In this document: positions 10,311 to 41,483 of the stretch, one piece after another
How the letters are laid out: the number at the start of each line of letters is the position of its first letter
Numbering within the stretch: the stretch's first letter is position 1
Source of the DNA: a virus
DNA: 43,792 nucleotides
IMG/VR virus record: IMGVR_UViG_3300005529_000016
Coordinates: 1 to 43,792 of that record
Strand: one strand, 5' to 3'
Translations under genes and position numbers: made by a program
Notes under the pieces: generated by a model
What the model was told of the DNA's origin: nothing
Seen by the model: only the letters and a program-made list of their open reading frames with translations
Database searches by the model: none

Positions 10311-10508
10311 GTGCGACGCCTCCGAACCCTCTGCCGCCGGGCCGGCCTCGCGCTGGCCGGCAACGTCTGGGAGCTGGCCGCGGCCGCCGGCGTGGGCCTC
10401 ATCGCCTGGGGCCTGGCCTGGCTCTTCCACCTGGCCATGGCGCCGCTCGTCTGCGGCGCGGCACTACTGACGCTCGGCGTCCTGGGGGCACGGCGATGGG
10501 GTTCCTGA
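10311..10508 (+). CDS. Small membrane protein between terminase and portal, 65 aa
   Basis: A GTG start 11 bases after the TerL stop. Two hydrophobic stretches (ELAAAAGVGLIAWGLAWLF and APLVCGAALLTLGVLGA) after a basic N-terminus predict a two-helix inner-membrane protein. Its stop overlaps the portal start by 13 bases. It resembles a holin in size, but its place inside the packaging module makes a head-assembly or membrane-docking role equally possible. Confidence 0.6.
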   Translation: MRRLRTLCRRAGLALAGNVWELAAAAGVGLIAWGLAWLFHLAMAPLVCGAALLTLGVLGARRWGS

Positions 10509-12727
10509 GTCGCATCCTGGCACCCGAGCGGCGGACCTCCCTGGAGAACCCGTCGTTCGACCTCAACAACCCGCCGGACTGGGCGTTCGACATGCTCGGC
10601 GCCCGCAAGTCGAGCGCGGGCGTCAACGTCAACCCCGAGACGGCGCTGACGCTCGACACGGTCTGGCGCGGGGTCAACCTGATCGCCGGCGACGTCGGCA
10701 AGCTGCCGCTCTACGTCTACCGGCGCGAGGGCCGGGGCAAGGAGAAGGACCGCGCCCACCCGGCCTACTACCTGCTCAGGCGCAAGCCCAACGAGGCGAT
10801 GACCGCCTTCCAGTGGCGCCGGCTGTCGATCGCGCACGCGCTCTTGCACGGCAACGGCTACAGCTACATCCGCCGCGGCCCCGACTACCGGCCCGTCGAA
10901 CTGCTGCCGCTCAGCCCGGTGCAGACCTGGCCCGTGCGCGTCAACGGGGTCATCTGGTACGTGACGAAGGTCCTGGGCAACGACGAGATGCGCAAGATCC
11001 CGCGGCACGACATGCTGCACGTCAAGGGCTTCGGGCCCGACGGCCTGCAGGGCTACAACTGGGTCGCCAAGGCGAGGGAGACGCTGGGCCTCAGCATGGC
11101 CGGGCTGCAGTACAGCTCGGTCTTCTACCGCAACAACGCGAAGCCCAGCGTGGTGATCACCTTCCCCCAGGCGATGGACAAGCGGTCCCGCGACGAGCTG
11201 CGCGACGGCTGGGAGCGGATGCAGAGCGGGCTGGAGAACGCCCACCGCACCGCCGTCTTAGACCGCGGCGGCGACATCAAGGAGATGACCATCAACGCGC
11301 GGGACGCGCAGATGATCGAGACCATGAAGCTCGGGCGCGTCCAGGTGGCCAACCTGCTCGGCCTGCCGCCGCACAAGCTCGGGGACGACGGCAAGACCGC
11401 CTACAACAGCCTCGAGCAGGAGAACCAGCAGTACCTCGACGAGGGCCTCGACCCCTGGCTGGTCAACGTGGAGGAGGAGAGCTGGGACAAGCTGCTGACG
11501 GAGGACGAGAAGACCGGGGACACTCACGAGGTCCTCTTCGACCGCAAGCGGCTGGTGCGGGCCGACGTCGCCGCGCGCACCACCTACTACGTCCAGGGCC
11601 TGACCAACGGCTGGCTGTCGATCGACGACGTGCGCGAGGAGGAGGACTACAACCCTCTGCCGGGCGGCCTGGGCGGGCAGTTCCGCGCCCCGCTCAACAC
11701 CGCCGCACTCGGCGGCGCCGCCGGCGGGGAGGAAGGGGAGGGCGGCGGCCTGGTCGCCGGCGAGCCGGCAGGGGTCCTCCTGGACACCGCCGACCTGCGC
11801 CAGCGCTTCACCTGGGACTGCGGGCCCACGGCCCTGCAGATCGCCTGCGGGCTGTTCGGCGTCGGTCCCGAATCCCCCGACGAGTGGGTCAAGCTCGTGG
11901 GCGCGACCGAGAAGGACGGCACCGACCCCGCCGCCATGATGCGCGCCGCCGTGGGCCTGGGCCTGGCGGTCACCGCCGGCGAGATGACGGTCGAGGACCT
12001 CGGCCGCTTCTTCGCCCAGGGCCGGCCCGTCGTCGTCGCCATGCAGGCCCTCGACTACCCGGCGACCGGGACCCGGGCCGGGCATTACGCGGTCGTCAAC
12101 GGCGTGGGCCTGGGCCAGGTGATGCTGCAGGACCCGGTCAGGGGCCGCGTGATGTTGCCGCAGGAGGACTTCACGAAGGCCTGGCACGACGTCGGGGCCG
12201 ACGGCACCCAGTACAAGCAGCTCGGCATCGCCCTGGGCGAGGAGCCCCTGCCGCCCGAACAGTCCGACGTGGACACCGAGCTGGAGGACGACGACCCGCC
12301 CGATGACCCGCCGGCGGACCCGCCGGACGACGGCCAGCGGACCCGGCTGCTGGAGGCGCACCGGCTGCTGCTGGAGAGCGCCCTGGCCCGCATGGCGCGG
12401 CGGCTGGGCAGCCAGGCCCGCAAGGCGGCGCGCAACCCCGCCGGCTTCGGCCGCTGGCTCGACGGCCTGGAGGCGCAGCACCGCGCCGCCGCCGAGGCCG
12501 CCCTGGGCCCGCCCCTGGCGGCGATCGCCGAGCTGACCGGCCGGCCGGCCGCCCCGGCCGCCCTGGCCGGCGAGCTGCTCGGCCGGGCCCGCAAGGCGCT
12601 GCTGGAGACGAGCGGGGCGGCCACCGCCGCGACCCTGGCCGCCCTCGTCGAGCGCGACGCCGGCGAGCTGGAGCGCGCCCTGCCCGGCCTGCTCGCCCGG
12701 CAGGCCCTGGAGGTGCCGCCGTGCTGA
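10496..12727 (+). CDS. Portal protein with an inserted C39-like papain-fold peptidase domain
   Basis: The 743-residue protein is much longer than usual HK97-type portals. Residues 1-400 are a standard portal core (LTLDTVWRGVNLIAGDVGKL, HDMLHVKGFG, GLPPHKLGD). An acidic/Gly linker then leads to a C39-like domain at about 431-585: Gln436 and Cys442 in QRFTWDCGPTALQ, His530 in GHYAVVNGV, Asp546 in MLQDPV. All catalytic positions are present. A Pro/Asp-rich linker and a helical C-terminal part (612-743) follow. Portals form the 12-fold ring for DNA entry and exit. The peptidase could cut head proteins during maturation, act on itself, or be carried into the host. Linkers on both sides and an intact frame argue against an assembly artefact. 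Confidence 0.9.
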   Translation: MGFLSRILAPERRTSLENPSFDLNNPPDWAFDMLGARKSSAGVNVNPETALTLDTVWRGVNLIAGDVGKLPLYVYRREGRGKEKDRAHPAYYLLRRKPNEAMTAFQWRRLSIAHALLHGNGYSYIRRGPDYRPVELLPLSPVQTWPVRVNGVIWYVTKVLGNDEMRKIPRHDMLHVKGFGPDGLQGYNWVAKARETLGLSMAGLQYSSVFYRNNAKPSVVITFPQAMDKRSRDELRDGWERMQSGLENAHRTAVLDRGGDIKEMTINARDAQMIETMKLGRVQVANLLGLPPHKLGDDGKTAYNSLEQENQQYLDEGLDPWLVNVEEESWDKLLTEDEKTGDTHEVLFDRKRLVRADVAARTTYYVQGLTNGWLSIDDVREEEDYNPLPGGLGGQFRAPLNTAALGGAAGGEEGEGGGLVAGEPAGVLLDTADLRQRFTWDCGPTALQIACGLFGVGPESPDEWVKLVGATEKDGTDPAAMMRAAVGLGLAVTAGEMTVEDLGRFFAQGRPVVVAMQALDYPATGTRAGHYAVVNGVGLGQVMLQDPVRGRVMLPQEDFTKAWHDVGADGTQYKQLGIALGEEPLPPEQSDVDTELEDDDPPDDPPADPPDDGQRTRLLEAHRLLLESALARMARRLGSQARKAARNPAGFGRWLDGLEAQHRAAAEAALGPPLAAIAELTGRPAAPAALAGELLGRARKALLETSGAATAATLAALVERDAGELERALPGLLARQALEVPPC

Positions 12728-12933
12728 CCGTCTCGATCGCCTGCGACCACTGCGCCCGCGACCTGCTCGCGGACAACCCGGCCGGCTACCGGATCGAGCT
12801 GGTGCCCGAGCGCGCCCCGCCGCGGCTGACCCTGCCCCGGCTGGTCCACTCGCCGCCGCCCGTCGAGAGGGTTCACCACTTCTGTAACCTGGCCTGCCTG
12901 GGCAAGTGGGCGGCCGAGCACGCGAGGACCTGA
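12721..12933 (+). CDS. Small putative zinc-binding protein, 70 aa
   Basis: A GTG start overlaps the portal stop (GTGCTGA). The product has CDHCARDLL near the N-terminus and HHFCNLACLGKW near the C-terminus, two Cys pairs about 50 residues apart that could form one treble-clef or ribbon site. Proteins of this outline occur in head modules of phages from high-GC hosts without known role. It lies directly before the prohead protease. Confidence 0.65.
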   Translation: MLTVSIACDHCARDLLADNPAGYRIELVPERAPPRLTLPRLVHSPPPVERVHHFCNLACLGKWAAEHART

Positions 12934-12935
12934 CC

Positions 12936-13571
12936 ATGCCCGAACGCCGCTTCAGCAAAATGCCCGTCGGCCTGCGCAAGCGGGACGACGGCACCGAGAC
13001 GATCGTGGGCTACGCCGCGGTGTTCTACAACGAGAACGACCCCGGGAGCGAGTACGCCATCTGGGACGACATGCGCGAGCGCATCATGCCCGGCTGCTTC
13101 GACCGGGCGATCCGGGAGGGCCAGGACTGCCGGGCCCTCTTCAACCACGACGCCGACAACCTCCTGGGCCGCGCGGCCGCCGGCACGCTCGCCCTGTCCG
13201 TGGACGGTAAGGGCCTGCGCTACGAGATCACGCCGGCGGACACCACCTGCGCCCGCGACGTGCTGGAGAACCTGCGCGCCGGCAACCTGTCGGGCTCGAG
13301 CTTCAGCTTTATCCCGCGCGACACCACCTTCCGGGAGCTGCGCGTGGACGGCGGCGACCGGACTTACATTCGGGAGGTCAACGACGTGGACTTGATCGAC
13401 GTGGGGCCCGTCACCTACCCGGCCTACGAATCGACGACGGCCGGCCTGCGCGCCGCCGGCGGCGACCTGGCCGGGCTGCGCCAGGAGCTGGAGGAGTGGC
13501 GGAAGAAACAGGGCCCGCCCCTGGCGGCGAAGCTGGCCGCCTACCGGGCGCGGGCCGTGGAGGTGCAGTGA
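12936..13571 (+). CDS. HK97-family prohead protease
   Basis: The 211-residue protein is the serine protease that trims the capsid precursor. It shows IVGYAAVFYNENDPGS, FNHDADNLLG (His71) and NLSGSSFSFIP (Ser121), then DVGPVTYPAYEST, the conserved series of the S78 family. The C-terminal helical tail (LRQELEEWRKKQG) is usual. It is placed just before the capsid gene, its substrate. ATG 12936 lies four bases after the previous stop. Confidence 0.93.
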   Translation: MPERRFSKMPVGLRKRDDGTETIVGYAAVFYNENDPGSEYAIWDDMRERIMPGCFDRAIREGQDCRALFNHDADNLLGRAAAGTLALSVDGKGLRYEITPADTTCARDVLENLRAGNLSGSSFSFIPRDTTFRELRVDGGDRTYIREVNDVDLIDVGPVTYPAYESTTAGLRAAGGDLAGLRQELEEWRKKQGPPLAAKLAAYRARAVEVQ

Positions 13572-13981: not shown

Positions 13982-14089
13982 GGAGACGCAAGTCCTCAGT
14001 GGCATCTAAATGTCGGCTGAACTTGCTGGCGACAGTGACCCAGAGACACTGCGCGCCGGTAGGCTCCGCCGATGCCCTTTTTCGGCCAC

Positions 14090-14111
14090 CCTCCGGCGCC
14101 CAGCCCGGAGG
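14090..14111 (+). promoter_or_regulatory. Hairpin covering the capsid ribosome binding site
   Basis: CCTCCGG (14090-14096) can pair with CCGGAGG (14105-14111) across an 8-base loop. The right arm contains the Shine-Dalgarno GGAGGAG at 14107-14113 of the capsid GTG at 14118. Folding would hide the ribosome site. Confidence 0.5.
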
Positions 14112-14117
14112 AGACCC

Positions 14118-15545
14118 GTGGCCGACACCCTCAAGGCCCTCTACGAGCGCAAGGCCAAGCACGCCGGCGAGATCAAGCGCCAGGCCGACCTCGTCAACGC
14201 CGAGAACCGCGACTTCAAGCCCGAGGAGCGCGCGGCCTGGGACCAGGCGAACAAGGACTACGACCAGGTCTGCGCGCAGATCAAGGTCGCCGAGCGCGCC
14301 GCCCAGGTCGAGGCCGACGAGCGCGCCCGGCAGGAGAAGGACCGGCAGATCGGCCGCGACGACTTCGGCGACGAGGAGTCGCGCCGGCGTCAGCAGCCCG
14401 GCACCGACGGCGCCTCGATCACCGAGGAGACGCGGGCGCTGGCGCTCAACGCCTGGTGCCGCCACCAGCTCGGCCACCAGCTGACCGACGGCATGGAGGA
14501 CGCCTGCAAGCAGCTCCGCTTCAACCCGGGGGTGCAGGCCCTCAACCTCCCCCTCTTCGAGACGCGCAGCTTCCAGCAGGCGCAGCAGGGCTTCCGGACC
14601 TTCAACCGGGCCAGCCCCCAGCTCCGCCAGCACTTCCAGGCGGCCACCGCCGAGCGGCGCACCCTGTCGGCGATCGCCGGGCCGGCCGGCGCCTACACCA
14701 TCGTGCCGATGGACCTGATCCGCAACCTGGAAATCAACATGCTGTACTACGGCGGCATGTTGCAGGTCTCGGAAATCATCCGCACCGCCACCGGCGAGCC
14801 CATGCTCTGGCCGACCGCCGACAACACCAGCATCAAGGGCCGCCGGATCAACCAGAACACGCAGGTGGACCTGGCCAACGCCGTCACGGCCGACCCGATC
14901 TTCGGCGCCGTGCAGTGGCAGGCCTGGAAGTACACGTCCGACGCGATCCTGGTCCCCTACGAGCTGCTCGAGGACAGCGTGTTCAACCTGCCCTCGGTCC
15001 TGGGCGAGATGCTCGGCGAGCGGCTGGGCCGCATCCAGAACACGGAGTTCACCACCGGCACGGGCGCCAGCCAGCCCTACGGCATCACGGTCGTCGCCCC
15101 CGTGGGCGTCACGACGGCCGTCAACAACGCGATCGCCGCGGACGAGCTGATCGACACGGTCCACAGCGTGGACGTCGCCTACCGCACGCCGGACGCGGGC
15201 TTCATGTTCCACGACAGCACCATCAAGGCCATCCGCAAGCTCAAGGACGGCCAGGGCCAGTACCTCTGGCAGGCCGGCCTGCAGCAGGGCCGCCCGGACA
15301 GCCTGCTGTCCTACACCCTGACGACCAACAACGACCTGGCCGCGATCGCGGCCTCGGCGGTCGTCGGCGTCTTCGGCCAGCTCTCCAAGTACAAGGTCCG
15401 CCAGGTCAACAACGTGCGCCTCTACCGCCTGCAGGAGCGGTTCCGCGACAACGACCAGGACGGCTTCGTGGCCTTCGTCCGCGCGGACGGCAACCTCCTG
15501 CAGGCCGGCACGGCGCCGGTCAAGACGCTGAAGATGCACAGCTAG
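14118..15545 (+). CDS. Major capsid protein, HK97 fold, with N-terminal scaffold (delta) domain
   Basis: GTG 14118 is chosen for its strong GGAGGAG box; an in-frame ATG at 14010 would add an unconserved Arg-rich lead. The 475-residue protein begins with a coiled-coil delta domain (VADTLKALYERKAKHAGEIK to about residue 95), which the prohead protease should remove. The HK97-type capsid part follows (GAYTIVPMDLIRNLEINMLY, YELLEDSVFNLPSVLGEMLG, GFMFHDSTIKAIRKLKDG and a C-terminal DGFVAFVRADGNLL). Gene order protease-capsid is the standard one. It is the main shell protein of the virion. Confidence 0.95.
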   Translation: MADTLKALYERKAKHAGEIKRQADLVNAENRDFKPEERAAWDQANKDYDQVCAQIKVAERAAQVEADERARQEKDRQIGRDDFGDEESRRRQQPGTDGASITEETRALALNAWCRHQLGHQLTDGMEDACKQLRFNPGVQALNLPLFETRSFQQAQQGFRTFNRASPQLRQHFQAATAERRTLSAIAGPAGAYTIVPMDLIRNLEINMLYYGGMLQVSEIIRTATGEPMLWPTADNTSIKGRRINQNTQVDLANAVTADPIFGAVQWQAWKYTSDAILVPYELLEDSVFNLPSVLGEMLGERLGRIQNTEFTTGTGASQPYGITVVAPVGVTTAVNNAIAADELIDTVHSVDVAYRTPDAGFMFHDSTIKAIRKLKDGQGQYLWQAGLQQGRPDSLLSYTLTTNNDLAAIAASAVVGVFGQLSKYKVRQVNNVRLYRLQERFRDNDQDGFVAFVRADGNLLQAGTAPVKTLKMHS

Positions 15546-30252: not shown

Positions 30253-30802
30253 AGTCACCGCCGCCGTCGTCGGGCTCGCCGCCCGCGCCCGCGCCGGCGA
30301 CCTGGCCGCCTTCGGCCTGCTCGCCGAGAAGTACCGCGGCATGGTCCTGGCGGCCGTGCGCCGCCACGCCCGCTCGCGCGAGGACGCCGAGGACCTGGCC
30401 CAGGAGGCGCTGCTGCGCGCCCTGCGCTTCGTCGGCGGCCTGCGCGACCCGGCGAGCTTCCCCTCCTGGCTGTGGCGCGTCGCCGTGCAGACCGCGCTGG
30501 CCCGCCCGGCCCCGCGGCCGGGGCCGCCGCCGGCCGCCGAGCCCGCGGCGCCGGGCGCCTGCCCCCTGGAGGCGCTGCTGCGCGCCGAGCTGCGACAGAT
30601 CGTCCGGCGGGCCGTCGCCGGCCTGCGCCCCACGGACCGCGAGGTCCTGGGCAGCTACTACCTGGCCGGCCGCTCGGTCGGCGAGACGGCCCGGCTCCTG
30701 GGCGTGCCGCGCGGCACGGTGCAGAGCCGGCTGCACGCCGCCCGCCGCCGGGCGCGCGCCGCCCTGTCCGCCCTGGGAGGTGACCCGTGCGCCGCTTCCT
30801 GA
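30239..30802 (+). CDS. ECF-type RNA polymerase sigma factor
   Basis: The 187-residue protein has both sigma domains. Region 2 spans about 19-88 (GDLAAFGLLAEKYRGMVLAA, SREDAEDLAQEALLRALRF, FPSWLWRVAVQTA). Region 4 spans about 115-175 (LRPTDREVLGSYYLAGRSVG, ETARLLGVPRGTVQSRLHAA). A Pro/Ala linker joins them; no extra domain and no anti-sigma gene are seen. ECF sigmas redirect host polymerase, and planctomycetes carry many. A phage copy at the end of the tail operon could switch on the lysis or surface-modification genes downstream. The GTG start overlaps the previous gene, and its end overlaps the dual-protease gene by 16 bases, so all three are translationally linked. Confidence 0.92.
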   Translation: MTRPEVTAAVVGLAARARAGDLAAFGLLAEKYRGMVLAAVRRHARSREDAEDLAQEALLRALRFVGGLRDPASFPSWLWRVAVQTALARPAPRPGPPPAAEPAAPGACPLEALLRAELRQIVRRAVAGLRPTDREVLGSYYLAGRSVGETARLLGVPRGTVQSRLHAARRRARAALSALGGDPCAAS

Positions 30803-31968
30803 CGCTGCTGCCGCTGCTGCTGCTGGCCACGGCCGCCCGCGCGATGGAGCCCGCCGCGGACCCGCAGTACGCCGCCGTAAGGATTCGCTCCCACGGGGCC
30901 TCGGCCACCGTCATCGCCACCGAGCCGGGCCGCTCCTGGCTCTTGGGCTGCTGCCACCAGTTCTTCGCCAGGGGCGAGCAGATCGACCCGGCCCTGGTCC
31001 ACAAGCCGTTCAAGTTCGACGGCCCCGCGCAGCCGTACGCGCGGCAGGTCCTCGCCCAGGCCCGCGTCATCGCCTACGACGCGAAGCGGGACCTGTCGCT
31101 GATGGAGGTCGATAACGGCCCGTTCTATTACGTGCCGGTCGCCCCGCGCGGCCACCGCCCGGGCCGCTGCGTCACCGTCGGTTACGACGAGATGAAGTGG
31201 CCGGTCACCTGCCGGGCCGCGACGGTCTTCAAGAGCGACCGCCTGACCCAGTGGACGCACGAGCCGCCCTGGCACGGGCGCTCGGGCGGCGGCCTGATCG
31301 ACGTGGACGGGCGGTACCTGATCGGCGTCGTGCAGGCCTACACGTCGCCGGCGGGCCGGCCGGACAAGGGGCTGCACGCCAGCCTGGAGAGCGTCCACGA
31401 GTTCATGGCCCCGCACTGGCAGCGCTGCCCGCAGTTCGGCCGGCCGGCCCTGGCGCAGGCGCCGCCGCAGTACCCCGGGCCGACCGGCTGGCTCGAAATC
31501 GACCGCGCCAACCGCGTGCCCAATCGAACGGGCAGTCAGTGCGGCTGGTCTTCCCTGGAGACGCTCGCCAGGCACCACCGGATCCAGGCGCTCTATGACC
31601 TGACGCGGCAGTACCACGGCCTGTCGAGCCCGGGCCAGGTGGCCCAGGTCCTCGGCGCCCGGGGCGTGCGCTACCGCCAGCAGCAGCCCGGGCAGCGCGA
31701 CACCGGCATCCTGACCGGCGAGGGCCGGCGGCTCGGCTGCCTGGTCGGCCTGGGCGGCAAGCACGCGGTCACCTGCCTGGGCAGCGACGGGCAGACCGTG
31801 AGGGTCATCGACAACGAGGGCCCGCGGGCCCTGGAGGTCCAGGACTGGCCCGCCGCGCAGTTCCTGGCCCAGTGGGACGGCTGGGCCGTCGTGCTCTACC
31901 CCGGCGCCCAGGGGCCGGCGCCGCAGTTCTTCCAGTCCCCCGGGCAGAGCTGCCCGGGCGGGACGTGA
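30787..31968 (+). CDS. Secreted dual-domain protein: trypsin-like serine protease plus C39-like papain-fold domain
   Basis: A GTG start inside the sigma gene. Residues 1-19 are a signal peptide (MRRFLTLLPLLLLATAARA). Residues about 28-210 read as a trypsin-like protease: His57 (GCCHQFF), Asp102 (KRDLSLMEV), Ser166 (HGRSGGGLIDVDG). Residues about 240-375 read as a C39-like domain: Cys252 (RTGSQCGWSSLETLARHH), His326 (LGGKHAVTCLG), Asp342 (VRVIDNEG), ending WDGWAVVLYPG. Both catalytic sets appear complete. The protein should act outside the cytoplasm, as a lysis peptidase, a maturation protease for envelope or fibre proteins, or a toxin-like effector. Which domain acts on which substrate is unknown. 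Confidence 0.85.
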   Translation: MRRFLTLLPLLLLATAARAMEPAADPQYAAVRIRSHGASATVIATEPGRSWLLGCCHQFFARGEQIDPALVHKPFKFDGPAQPYARQVLAQARVIAYDAKRDLSLMEVDNGPFYYVPVAPRGHRPGRCVTVGYDEMKWPVTCRAATVFKSDRLTQWTHEPPWHGRSGGGLIDVDGRYLIGVVQAYTSPAGRPDKGLHASLESVHEFMAPHWQRCPQFGRPALAQAPPQYPGPTGWLEIDRANRVPNRTGSQCGWSSLETLARHHRIQALYDLTRQYHGLSSPGQVAQVLGARGVRYRQQQPGQRDTGILTGEGRRLGCLVGLGGKHAVTCLGSDGQTVRVIDNEGPRALEVQDWPAAQFLAQWDGWAVVLYPGAQGPAPQFFQSPGQSCPGGT

Positions 31969-39961: not shown

Positions 39962-40405
39962 ATGGGAAACCAATTTCAGCGCAAGCCGATCGTTTTCTTC
40001 ACGGACGAGAGGGGATGCCACGTATGCACTTCGCACTGGAAGGACTACGACGGGTACCCTCGGATCAAGATCGGCGGAGTTAAAATGCCCGTCTCCCACC
40101 TGGCCTATGAGCGGCGGTTCGGTCCGGTTCCCCAGGGTCTGATCCTGAGGCACACCTGCGATAACCCTGCCTGCATTAACCCGGAGCACCTCGTGCCGGG
40201 CACCCACGCCGATAACGTGGCCGATCGCGTGCAGAGGGGTCGGTCCGCGGCAGGCGGCAAGAACGGCCGGGCCAAGCTCACCCCCGCCATCGTCCGAGAG
40301 ATCTTGGCCTCCGACGAAACGACCTGCGCCTGGGCGCGAAGGCTGGGCGTTGACCCGAAGACAGTCCGGAGTATCCGTCAGAGGAAAATCTGGGCCAGCG
40401 CGTAG
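39962..40405 (+). CDS. HNH homing-type endonuclease
   Basis: The 147-residue protein has a HNH_3-type domain: CHVCTSHWKDYDGYPRIKIG, VSHLAYERRFGPVPQG, then ILRHTCDNPACINPEHLVPG with His64 and His77, and THADNVADRVQRG. The C-terminal part (KLTPAIVREILASDETTCAW, LGVDPKTVRSIRQRKIW) is a helix-turn-helix. The layout is the same as in the minus-strand gene at 35523. It sits behind a terminator with more A/T than its neighbours, consistent with a recently inserted selfish gene. Confidence 0.88.
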   Translation: MGNQFQRKPIVFFTDERGCHVCTSHWKDYDGYPRIKIGGVKMPVSHLAYERRFGPVPQGLILRHTCDNPACINPEHLVPGTHADNVADRVQRGRSAAGGKNGRAKLTPAIVREILASDETTCAWARRLGVDPKTVRSIRQRKIWASA

Positions 40406-40420
40406 TTCGAGGCCTGGCGG

Positions 40421-40438
40421 GGCTCTGGCACCAGCACC
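40421..40438. repeat. Degenerate copy of the dispersed palindrome
   Basis: GGCTCTGGCACCAGCACC matches the common form at 13 of 18 positions. It ends 10 bases before the ATG of the Rad52-like gene, the same placement as better copies. Confidence 0.3.
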
Positions 40439-40448
40439 GAGGTTCACC

Positions 40449-41483
40449 ATGAGCAGCGACGAGAGCAAGACCAGCCTGCAGGACCAGCTCGCGCGGCCCT
40501 TCGAGGCGACGGAAGTGAAGTGGAAGGCGCAGGTGGTGCGCGGCAACCGCGCCCTCAGCGTCGCCTACGTGGACGCGCGGGTGGTGATGGACCGGCTCGA
40601 CGCCGTCTTCGGCGTCGGCGGCTGGCAGGACGCCTACGCGGAGCTGCCCGCCACCAAGAGCGTCGTCTGCAAGCTGCGCGTCAAGATCGGCCAGGACTGG
40701 GTCGAGAAGTCCGACGTCGGCAGCCAGAGCGACCAGCCCGACGAGGGCGACCGCATGAAGTCGGCGTTCTCCGACGCGCTGAAGCGCGCGGCCGTCCACT
40801 TCGGCGTCGGCCGCTACCTGTACCGGCTGCCCCAGCAGTGGGTCGATTACGACCCGCAGACCCGGCAGCTGACGGCGACCCCGAAGCTGCCGTCCTGGGC
40901 GGTCCCCGGCAAGGCCGACGACAAGGACCGGCCCTCCGCGCCGACCCTGACCCGCGAGCAGTGGCTGGCGGTCAAGGCCTGGCTCACCAACCTGCACGTC
41001 TCGCAGCGCGCCTTCCTCGACCACCTGGGCGTCCAGCGGCCGGGCCTGATCCCCGCCGCCCGCTTCGACGAGGTCCTGCGCCTGGCGCAGCAGCCGCGCA
41101 AGGAGTGGCTCCTCGCCGGCGCGCCGCCGCCGGCGGACCGTCCCAAGCTCGACGCCCAGGGCGACCCCAGGCTGCGCGAGCCGCTGCCCGACGAGCCGCT
41201 GGGGGAGAAGGGCGCCGCCCCCCTGGAGCGCCGGCTGCTGGAGCGCGGCGAGGACTACGCCGACGCCGTGCTGCGCGTCCTGGGACTGCGCGACCTGACG
41301 CAGATGCCCCACGGCTGGAAGCCCGGCGTGGACGAGCTGCTGCGCCGCCACCGGACGGCGGCCGAGCTGCTCTCCTGGCAGCGCGACGCCCTGGGCGGCG
41401 ACTCGATCAACGACCTGCCCGAGCACGAGCGCGACCGCGCCTTCCGCCGCTCCTACCAGGCGCCCGCCGGCGCCGCGCAGTAA
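40449..41483 (+). CDS. Rad52/Rad22-family single-strand annealing protein
   Basis: The 344-residue protein has the Rad52-type DNA-binding core in its first 130 residues: ALSVAYVDARVVMDRLDAVF, GVGGWQDAY, CKLRVKIGQDWVEKSDVG and KSAFSDALKRAAVHFGVGRY with LYRLP. The rest is a helical tail with no clear domain. Phage Rad52-like proteins anneal complementary strands during recombination-dependent replication and repair. No partner exonuclease or SSB is recognised nearby; the VRR-NUC protein at 6.6 kb may serve the same pathway. Confidence 0.9.
   Translation: MSSDESKTSLQDQLARPFEATEVKWKAQVVRGNRALSVAYVDARVVMDRLDAVFGVGGWQDAYAELPATKSVVCKLRVKIGQDWVEKSDVGSQSDQPDEGDRMKSAFSDALKRAAVHFGVGRYLYRLPQQWVDYDPQTRQLTATPKLPSWAVPGKADDKDRPSAPTLTREQWLAVKAWLTNLHVSQRAFLDHLGVQRPGLIPAARFDEVLRLAQQPRKEWLLAGAPPPADRPKLDAQGDPRLREPLPDEPLGEKGAAPLERRLLERGEDYADAVLRVLGLRDLTQMPHGWKPGVDELLRRHRTAAELLSWQRDALGGDSINDLPEHERDRAFRRSYQAPAGAAQ

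What the first reader, a model, noticed from the sequence alone, without database searches (positions are those of the whole stretch)
11786..12250. Complete C39-like cysteine peptidase domain inserted in the phage portal protein
Residues 431-585 of the 743-aa portal carry Gln436, Cys442 (DCGPTA), His530 (GHYAVV) and Asp546 (QDP), all positions needed for a papain-fold C39 enzyme, flanked by flexible linkers and followed by a helical portal C-terminus. Portals fused to other domains (for example MuF) are known to me, but I do not recall a C39 insertion. Twelve copies would sit at the head vertex, either in the capsid lumen or facing the connector. It could mature head proteins, cut a double-Gly-type leader, or be delivered with the DNA.
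Basis: partly seen in the sequence, partly recalled or inferred. Interest (0 to 1): 0.82.

Follow-up and report, generated by a model that had tools for sequence, protein, structure and literature searches.

The report
Cysteine protease built into phage portal
A virus of bacteria, probably of planctomycetes, carries a complete protein-cutting enzyme inside the ring protein through which its DNA passes; the same arrangement occurs in unrelated samples with the catalytic residues kept, so it is most likely an enzyme packed in the virus head, although what it cuts is unknown.

Summary
The 743-aa ORF (10496-12727) is an HK97-type portal with a complete C39/papain-fold domain at residues ~427-583: Pfam C39 34.4 bits (cut-off 22), AlphaFold pLDDT 89, Foldseek hits to C39 peptidases and PeiR at 1e-7 to 1e-8. 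The genome has 80-bp end repeats and no Ns. Three viral contigs from other metagenomes carry the same fusion (L005, L020, L022); in related portals without C39 the site is a 12-71 aa linker instead of 218-272 aa. A second, independent portal-C39 fusion exists (L140), its C39 nested among MuF-fused C39s (L016, L139). His and Asp are kept in all 43 C39 domains compared, Cys in all 42 that cover it. The helical tail is a separable module related to a MuF-like one; relatives add ParB-like, InPase or unidentified domains. This fits the known theme of enzymes fused to portal or MuF head proteins (polyvalent proteins, MuF toxins), which includes papain-like peptidases on MuF. I found no report of C39 on a portal: a new variant of a known kind. 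Most likely it is head-lumen cargo, released by linker cleavage and acting on a host protein; a self-releasing peptidase is the main rival. No cleavage or delivery was shown.

The parts
10496..12727 (+). portal-C39-helical-bundle fusion ORF, 743 aa, 80.9 kDa
10553..11698 (+). HK97-type portal core, residues ~20-401
   Evidence: Pfam Phage_portal E 6.8e-89; TIGR01537 portal_HK97 271.9 bits; Foldseek HK97 portal 8fql E 3.6e-21
11699..11773 (+). disordered Gly/Glu-rich linker 1, residues 402-426
   Evidence: pLDDT below 50
11774..12244 (+). C39/papain-fold peptidase domain, residues ~427-583
11801..11803 (+). Gln436, predicted oxyanion-hole Gln
   Evidence: kept in 39 of the 42 C39 rows that cover it, counting the masked position of L126 as unknown; Cys in L005, Met in L012 and L150
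11819..11821 (+). Cys442, predicted nucleophile
   Evidence: kept in 42 of 42 rows; aligns with Cys90 of PeiR
12044..12046 (+). Gln517, invariant, role unknown
   Evidence: 43 of 43 rows
12083..12085 (+). His530, predicted catalytic base
   Evidence: 43 of 43 rows
12131..12133 (+). Asp546, predicted third triad residue
   Evidence: 43 of 43 rows
12245..12316 (+). disordered acidic/Pro-rich linker 2, residues 584-607
   Evidence: pLDDT below 50
12326..12709 (+). C-terminal helical bundle, residues ~611-738, related to the helical part of a MuF-like module
   Evidence: pLDDT mostly above 90; hhalign 95.7%, E 9.4e-9 with the MuF-like tails of L059/L064/L072/L078
8599..10299 (+). terminase large subunit
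12906..13571 (+). S78 prohead protease
   Evidence: Pfam E 2.6e-39
14010..15545 (+). HK97-type major capsid protein
   Evidence: Pfam E 4e-41

Best explanation
The portal is a platform that carries enzyme cargo into the virion. Its C-terminal side, which in HK97-type portals faces the head lumen, has an extra C39-type cysteine peptidase on flexible linkers, followed by a helical module of MuF-like descent. Twelve copies would thus be packaged at the vertex. After assembly or at ejection a cut in one or both linkers (by the S78 prohead protease encoded next door, or by C39 itself) frees the domain, which leaves with the DNA and cleaves a host protein early in infection, as proposed for polyvalent proteins and MuF-linked effectors. 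Shown: the fold, the conserved catalytic residues, the fusion and its recurrence. Inferred: lumenal position, release, injection, activity and a host target.
For: Papain/C39 fold. Cys, His and Asp kept in every row that covers them, across 43 C39 domains, many only 20-40% identical to the window's: the chemistry is selected. Fusion present in four related phages and lost once in a subclade, plus an independent portal fusion L140 (Pfam portal 69 bits, C39_2 40 bits) and MuF fusions L016 and L139. In L140, L016 and L139 the C39 is the last domain, the position expected of an effector. Most other phage copies are free-standing, so the enzyme can work in trans. Sister portals carry InPase (71.7 bits), which Iyer et al. 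(PMC5512222) report on portals and read as injected, and ParB-like domains at the same end. HK97 crown at the inner capsid surface (PMC10359639); window core best matches HK97 portal.
Against: A portal ring stays in the virion, so release is required and unproven; no cleavage site was identified. No host target and no immunity gene were found. The window C39 is internal, not terminal. L005 has lost the oxyanion Gln and other motif residues, which suggests altered or weak activity there.
Confidence: 0.42

Rival explanations
1. Releasing peptidase: C39 cuts the linkers of its own polypeptide inside the prohead or after ejection and so frees the neighbouring modules (helical bundle, ParB-like or other C-terminal domain) from the portal. 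It would be the counterpart of the metallopeptidases proposed to process polyvalent proteins.
For: In the window, L005, L020 and L022 the domain sits exactly between the portal core and downstream modules, on disordered linkers. Zhang et al. (PMC3482391) propose this role for internal papain-like domains, and propose processing during assembly or release for the Tox-PL1-MuF fusions. C39 peptidases are specific leader-cutting enzymes.
Against: Sister portals with the same ParB-like or InPase tails lack C39. In L140, L016 and L139 nothing follows C39. No shared cleavage motif was found in the linkers; Gly-Gly pairs occur, but also in the conserved end of C39-free portals.
Confidence: 0.25
2. Head-maturation protease that trims capsid, scaffold or portal during assembly.
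For: Position at the vertex; genes lie in the head module.
Against: A complete S78 prohead protease is encoded next to it; close relatives mature without C39.
Confidence: 0.1
3. Catalytically idle domain kept for structure or binding, or a decaying insertion.
For: L005 lacks the oxyanion Gln and the GP motif and has His-Gly for His-Tyr; the subclade of L023-L048 lost the domain.
Against: Triad residues invariant in all portal-linked copies, including L022 and L140, at about 37-42% domain identity within the clade.
Confidence: 0.15
4. Cell-wall enzyme that opens peptidoglycan for DNA entry, as PeiR cuts pseudomurein.
For: PeiR is the best sequence and structure match in the PDB; several viral structure matches are endolysins.
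Against: A head-lumen location is a poor place for a wall enzyme; C39 leader peptidases match almost as well; PeiR recognises an archaeal wall polymer.
Confidence: 0.05
5. Assembly chimera or frameshift artefact.
For: None found.
Against: Same architecture in independent metagenomes, uniform coding pattern, no Ns in the window.
Confidence: 0.01

Closest known systems
Phage polyvalent proteins and portal fusions of Iyer et al. 2017 (PMC5512222)
   Same: Enzymatic domains fused to portal or MuF, read as packaged and injected; InPase on a portal is reported there and occurs on sister portal L027.
   Different: That paper lists four peptidase superfamilies (zincin-like, assemblin-like, DD, LonC); the words papain and C39 do not occur in its main text.
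Papain-like Tox-PL1 fused to MuF (Zhang et al. 2012, PMC3482391) and MuF polymorphic toxins (PMC5576092)
   Same: Papain-fold peptidase on a head-vertex protein of phages; roles proposed are toxin or releasing peptidase. C39-like toxin domains (Tox-PL-C39) are also described there.
   Different: Here the carrier is the portal itself, the family is C39 and the domain is internal.
C39 peptidase domains of bacteriocin ABC transporters (ComA, PCAT1, LahT type)
   Same: Fold and Gln-Cys-His-Asp arrangement.
   Different: No transporter, no leader peptide; the extra W-H-D region after the Asp-Pro motif is shared with free-standing phage and planctomycete C39 proteins instead.
PeiR pseudomurein endoisopeptidase (8z4h)
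   Same: Best PDB match by sequence (E 3.4e-4) and fold (1e-8).
   Different: 22-23% identity; archaeal wall substrate; not on a portal.

Membership tests
HK97-type portal protein | portal profile and fold | tested here: met
   TIGR01537 271.9 bits against 112; Pfam 298.7 bits; Foldseek 8fql
HK97-type portal protein | gene order TerL-portal-protease-capsid | tested here: met
HK97-type portal protein | dodecameric ring at one vertex | not testable with these tools
   no virion data
Peptidase C39 (PF03412) | profile over curated cut-off | tested here: met
   34.4 bits against 22
Peptidase C39 (PF03412) | Gln, Cys, His, Asp at active-site positions in a papain fold | tested here: met
Peptidase C39 (PF03412) | cleaves after a double-glycine leader | not testable with these tools
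   no substrate identified
Peptidase C39 (PF03412) | part of an ABC transporter (classical members) | tested here: not met
   fused to a portal; no transporter domain matched in the ORF
Phage polyvalent protein | two or more effector-type domains in one virion-linked polypeptide | tested here: inconclusive
   window has one enzyme domain; L005 and L020 have C39 plus a ParB-like domain whose Pfam score is below cut-off
Phage polyvalent protein | packaged and injected | not testable with these tools
   needs virion and infection proteomics
MuF polymorphic toxin | MuF domain N-terminal to the toxin | tested here: not met
   no MuF match in the window ORF; only the helical part of a MuF-like module is related

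The most novel reading that the evidence does not exclude
The C39 domain is a built-in releasing peptidase at the portal vertex: it cuts the portal linkers on a packaging or ejection signal and sets free effector modules inside the head, a phage counterpart of the papain-like proteases that process RNA-virus polyproteins, and so the missing release step for enzymes fused to portals.
Probability: 0.2. Interest if true: 0.82.

Novelty: new variant of a known kind. Interest (0 to 1): 0.52.

Why it matters
Enzymes fused to portals have been read as injected effectors, yet a portal is not expected to leave the virion. An active peptidase placed in the linker between portal and cargo makes that contradiction testable: either the peptidase is itself the cargo or it is the tool that releases it. 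The recurrence on portal and MuF proteins also shows that one C39 lineage was moved between two head-vertex proteins.

Tried and rejected
Assembly chimera: rejected. Search for near-identical C39 domains in viral contigs with the single sequence, in plasmids and in phage records: none except free-standing homologues in huge phages. Two scans of genome contigs for the fused portal found only one C39-free relative, in a Planctomycetaceae MAG; a survey of 392 genomes of that phylum found no fused copy among the matches, only C39-free portals or free-standing C39 proteins. L022 first looked truncated; it is a 10-N scaffold gap inside C39, and the second half keeps His and Asp. A double-glycine processing site was considered; Gly-Gly pairs in the linkers are not informative because C39-free portals have them too. 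A link of the helical tail with the classical MuF domain of L016 was not found (hhalign 0.1%); the link is only with the MuF-like tails of L059, L064, L072 and L078, whose own Pfam MuF or other domain scores are below cut-off.

Full report
What is there. The window is a complete-looking temperate siphovirus-type genome: 80-bp repeats at both ends and no Ns, a tyrosine integrase, terminase, portal, S78 prohead protease, HK97 capsid, head completion protein, Neck1-like and tape-measure proteins. The portal ORF (10496-12727, 743 aa) has three parts. Residues ~20-401 are a standard HK97-type portal. Residues ~427-583 are a C39/papain-fold domain. Residues ~611-738 are a helical bundle. AlphaFold gives high confidence to each part and low confidence (below 50) to the two linkers, 402-426 and 584-607.

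The domain is a real C39 peptidase fold. Pfam C39 34.4 bits against a cut-off of 22; the domain model has mean pLDDT 89.4 and matches PeiR and the C39 domains of PCAT1, ComA and an AMS/PCAT transporter by Foldseek at 1e-8 to 1e-7. Cys442 aligns with Cys90 of PeiR, the residue replaced in the deposited mutant. In 43 C39 domains gathered here His530 and Asp546 are kept in all and Cys442 in all 42 rows that cover it; Gln436 is replaced by Cys in L005 and by Met in L012 and L150; Gln517 and Trp563 are invariant. L022, left out of that set because of its gap, also keeps Gln, Cys, His and Asp.

The fusion recurs and its empty site is visible. L005, L020 and L022, from metagenomes 3300010379, 3300047160 and 3300013772, have C39 at the same place with portal cores 48-50% identical to the window's. 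From the end of the core to the helical bundle there are 218, 272 and 247 residues in the window, L005 and L020, against 12-71 in the C39-free relatives where both ends could be placed. On a tree of portal cores the four fused portals lie in one supported clade of 11 rows (97/97), with C39-free portals nested inside; on a tree of C39 domains they form one group (100/99). One gain followed by one loss explains both.

The helical tail is a module of its own. It is related to the helical part of a MuF-like tail on other portals of the set (L059, L064, L072, L078; hhalign 95.7%, E 9.4e-9). In L022 it is read from a separate ORF after the C39-bearing one. Beyond it some relatives add about 165 residues: a ParB-like DGHHR domain (L005, L020, L023, L025, L026, L048; Pfam ParBc_2 below cut-off where it matched at all) or an inorganic pyrophosphatase, InPase (L027, 71.7 bits against 26.8). 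L022 has after its C39 an unidentified domain without Pfam match; its ExK-like motif made me think of a nuclease, which is a guess.

Independent fusions. L140 is a different portal (Pfam 69 bits) with C39 at its C-terminal end; L016 and L139 are MuF proteins with C39 at the end. The L140 domain groups with L139 and L016 (98/91), apart from the window clade. So one C39 lineage was exchanged between MuF and portal, and portals gained C39 at least twice. L012 combines C39 with InPase. Most other phage copies are free-standing. In planctomycete genomes the related free-standing proteins begin with what look like signal or lipoprotein sequences (read by eye).

How it probably works. HK97 portals expose the crown at the inner capsid surface (PMC10359639). 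The insert lies C-terminal to the core, so a lumenal position is likely, though not shown. There it can be cargo. Iyer et al. (PMC5512222) read domains fused to portal or MuF as packaged and injected; Zhang et al. (PMC3482391) propose that papain-like domains on MuF process proteins during assembly or release. I put 0.42 on host-directed cargo, 0.25 on a releasing peptidase, 0.15 on an idle domain, 0.1 on head maturation and 0.05 on a wall enzyme. The terminal position of C39 in L140, L016 and L139, and the many free-standing copies, favour a role in trans; the internal position in the window clade favours release. Neither is decided. Because the portal ring stays in the virion, any injection model needs a cut that has not been shown.

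Novelty. Fusion of enzymes to portals and of papain-like peptidases to MuF is known. C39 on a portal was not found in the papers searched, nor did BFVD list a portal among the structural matches with a name. The libraries are incomplete, so this is absence from what was searched. I class it as a new variant of a known kind.

Host. The nearest cellular portal relative found is in a Planctomycetaceae MAG, 44% identity. This is a weak hint at a planctomycete host.

Noticed in passing
L016:2126-4540: MuF protein interrupted by an intein with a LAGLIDADG domain and ending in C39; the next gene is a Neck1-type protein.
   Followed up: partly
L140:2513-4561: Second, independent portal-C39 fusion, C39 at the C-terminal end.
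   Followed up: yes
L136 (contig of L022), 1811-2758 and after: After C39 comes an RDPDGKFGSG-type linker and an unidentified C-terminal domain; the helical bundle is read from a separate ORF. L020 has a similar REPDGKFGSG linker before its C-terminal extension.
   Followed up: partly
L088:1853-3820: Portal ORF that continues in frame into what reads as an S78-type prohead protease (read by eye).
   Followed up: no
L012:3320-6367: 1016-aa protein with InPase, C39 and a weak glycosyltransferase-28 match.
   Followed up: partly
window 30787-31968: Trypsin-like (Trypsin_2) serine protease gene in the phage genome, 34.6 bits.
   Followed up: no
window 12721-12933: 70-aa ORF between portal and protease with CxxC and CxxxC motifs, no Pfam match.
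   Followed up: no
window 12044-12046: Gln517 is invariant in all 43 C39 domains compared, outside the usual triad; role unknown.
   Followed up: no
window 40350-41483 and 7-1866: Rad52-type recombinase and a ParB-type protein in the same phage.
   Followed up: no
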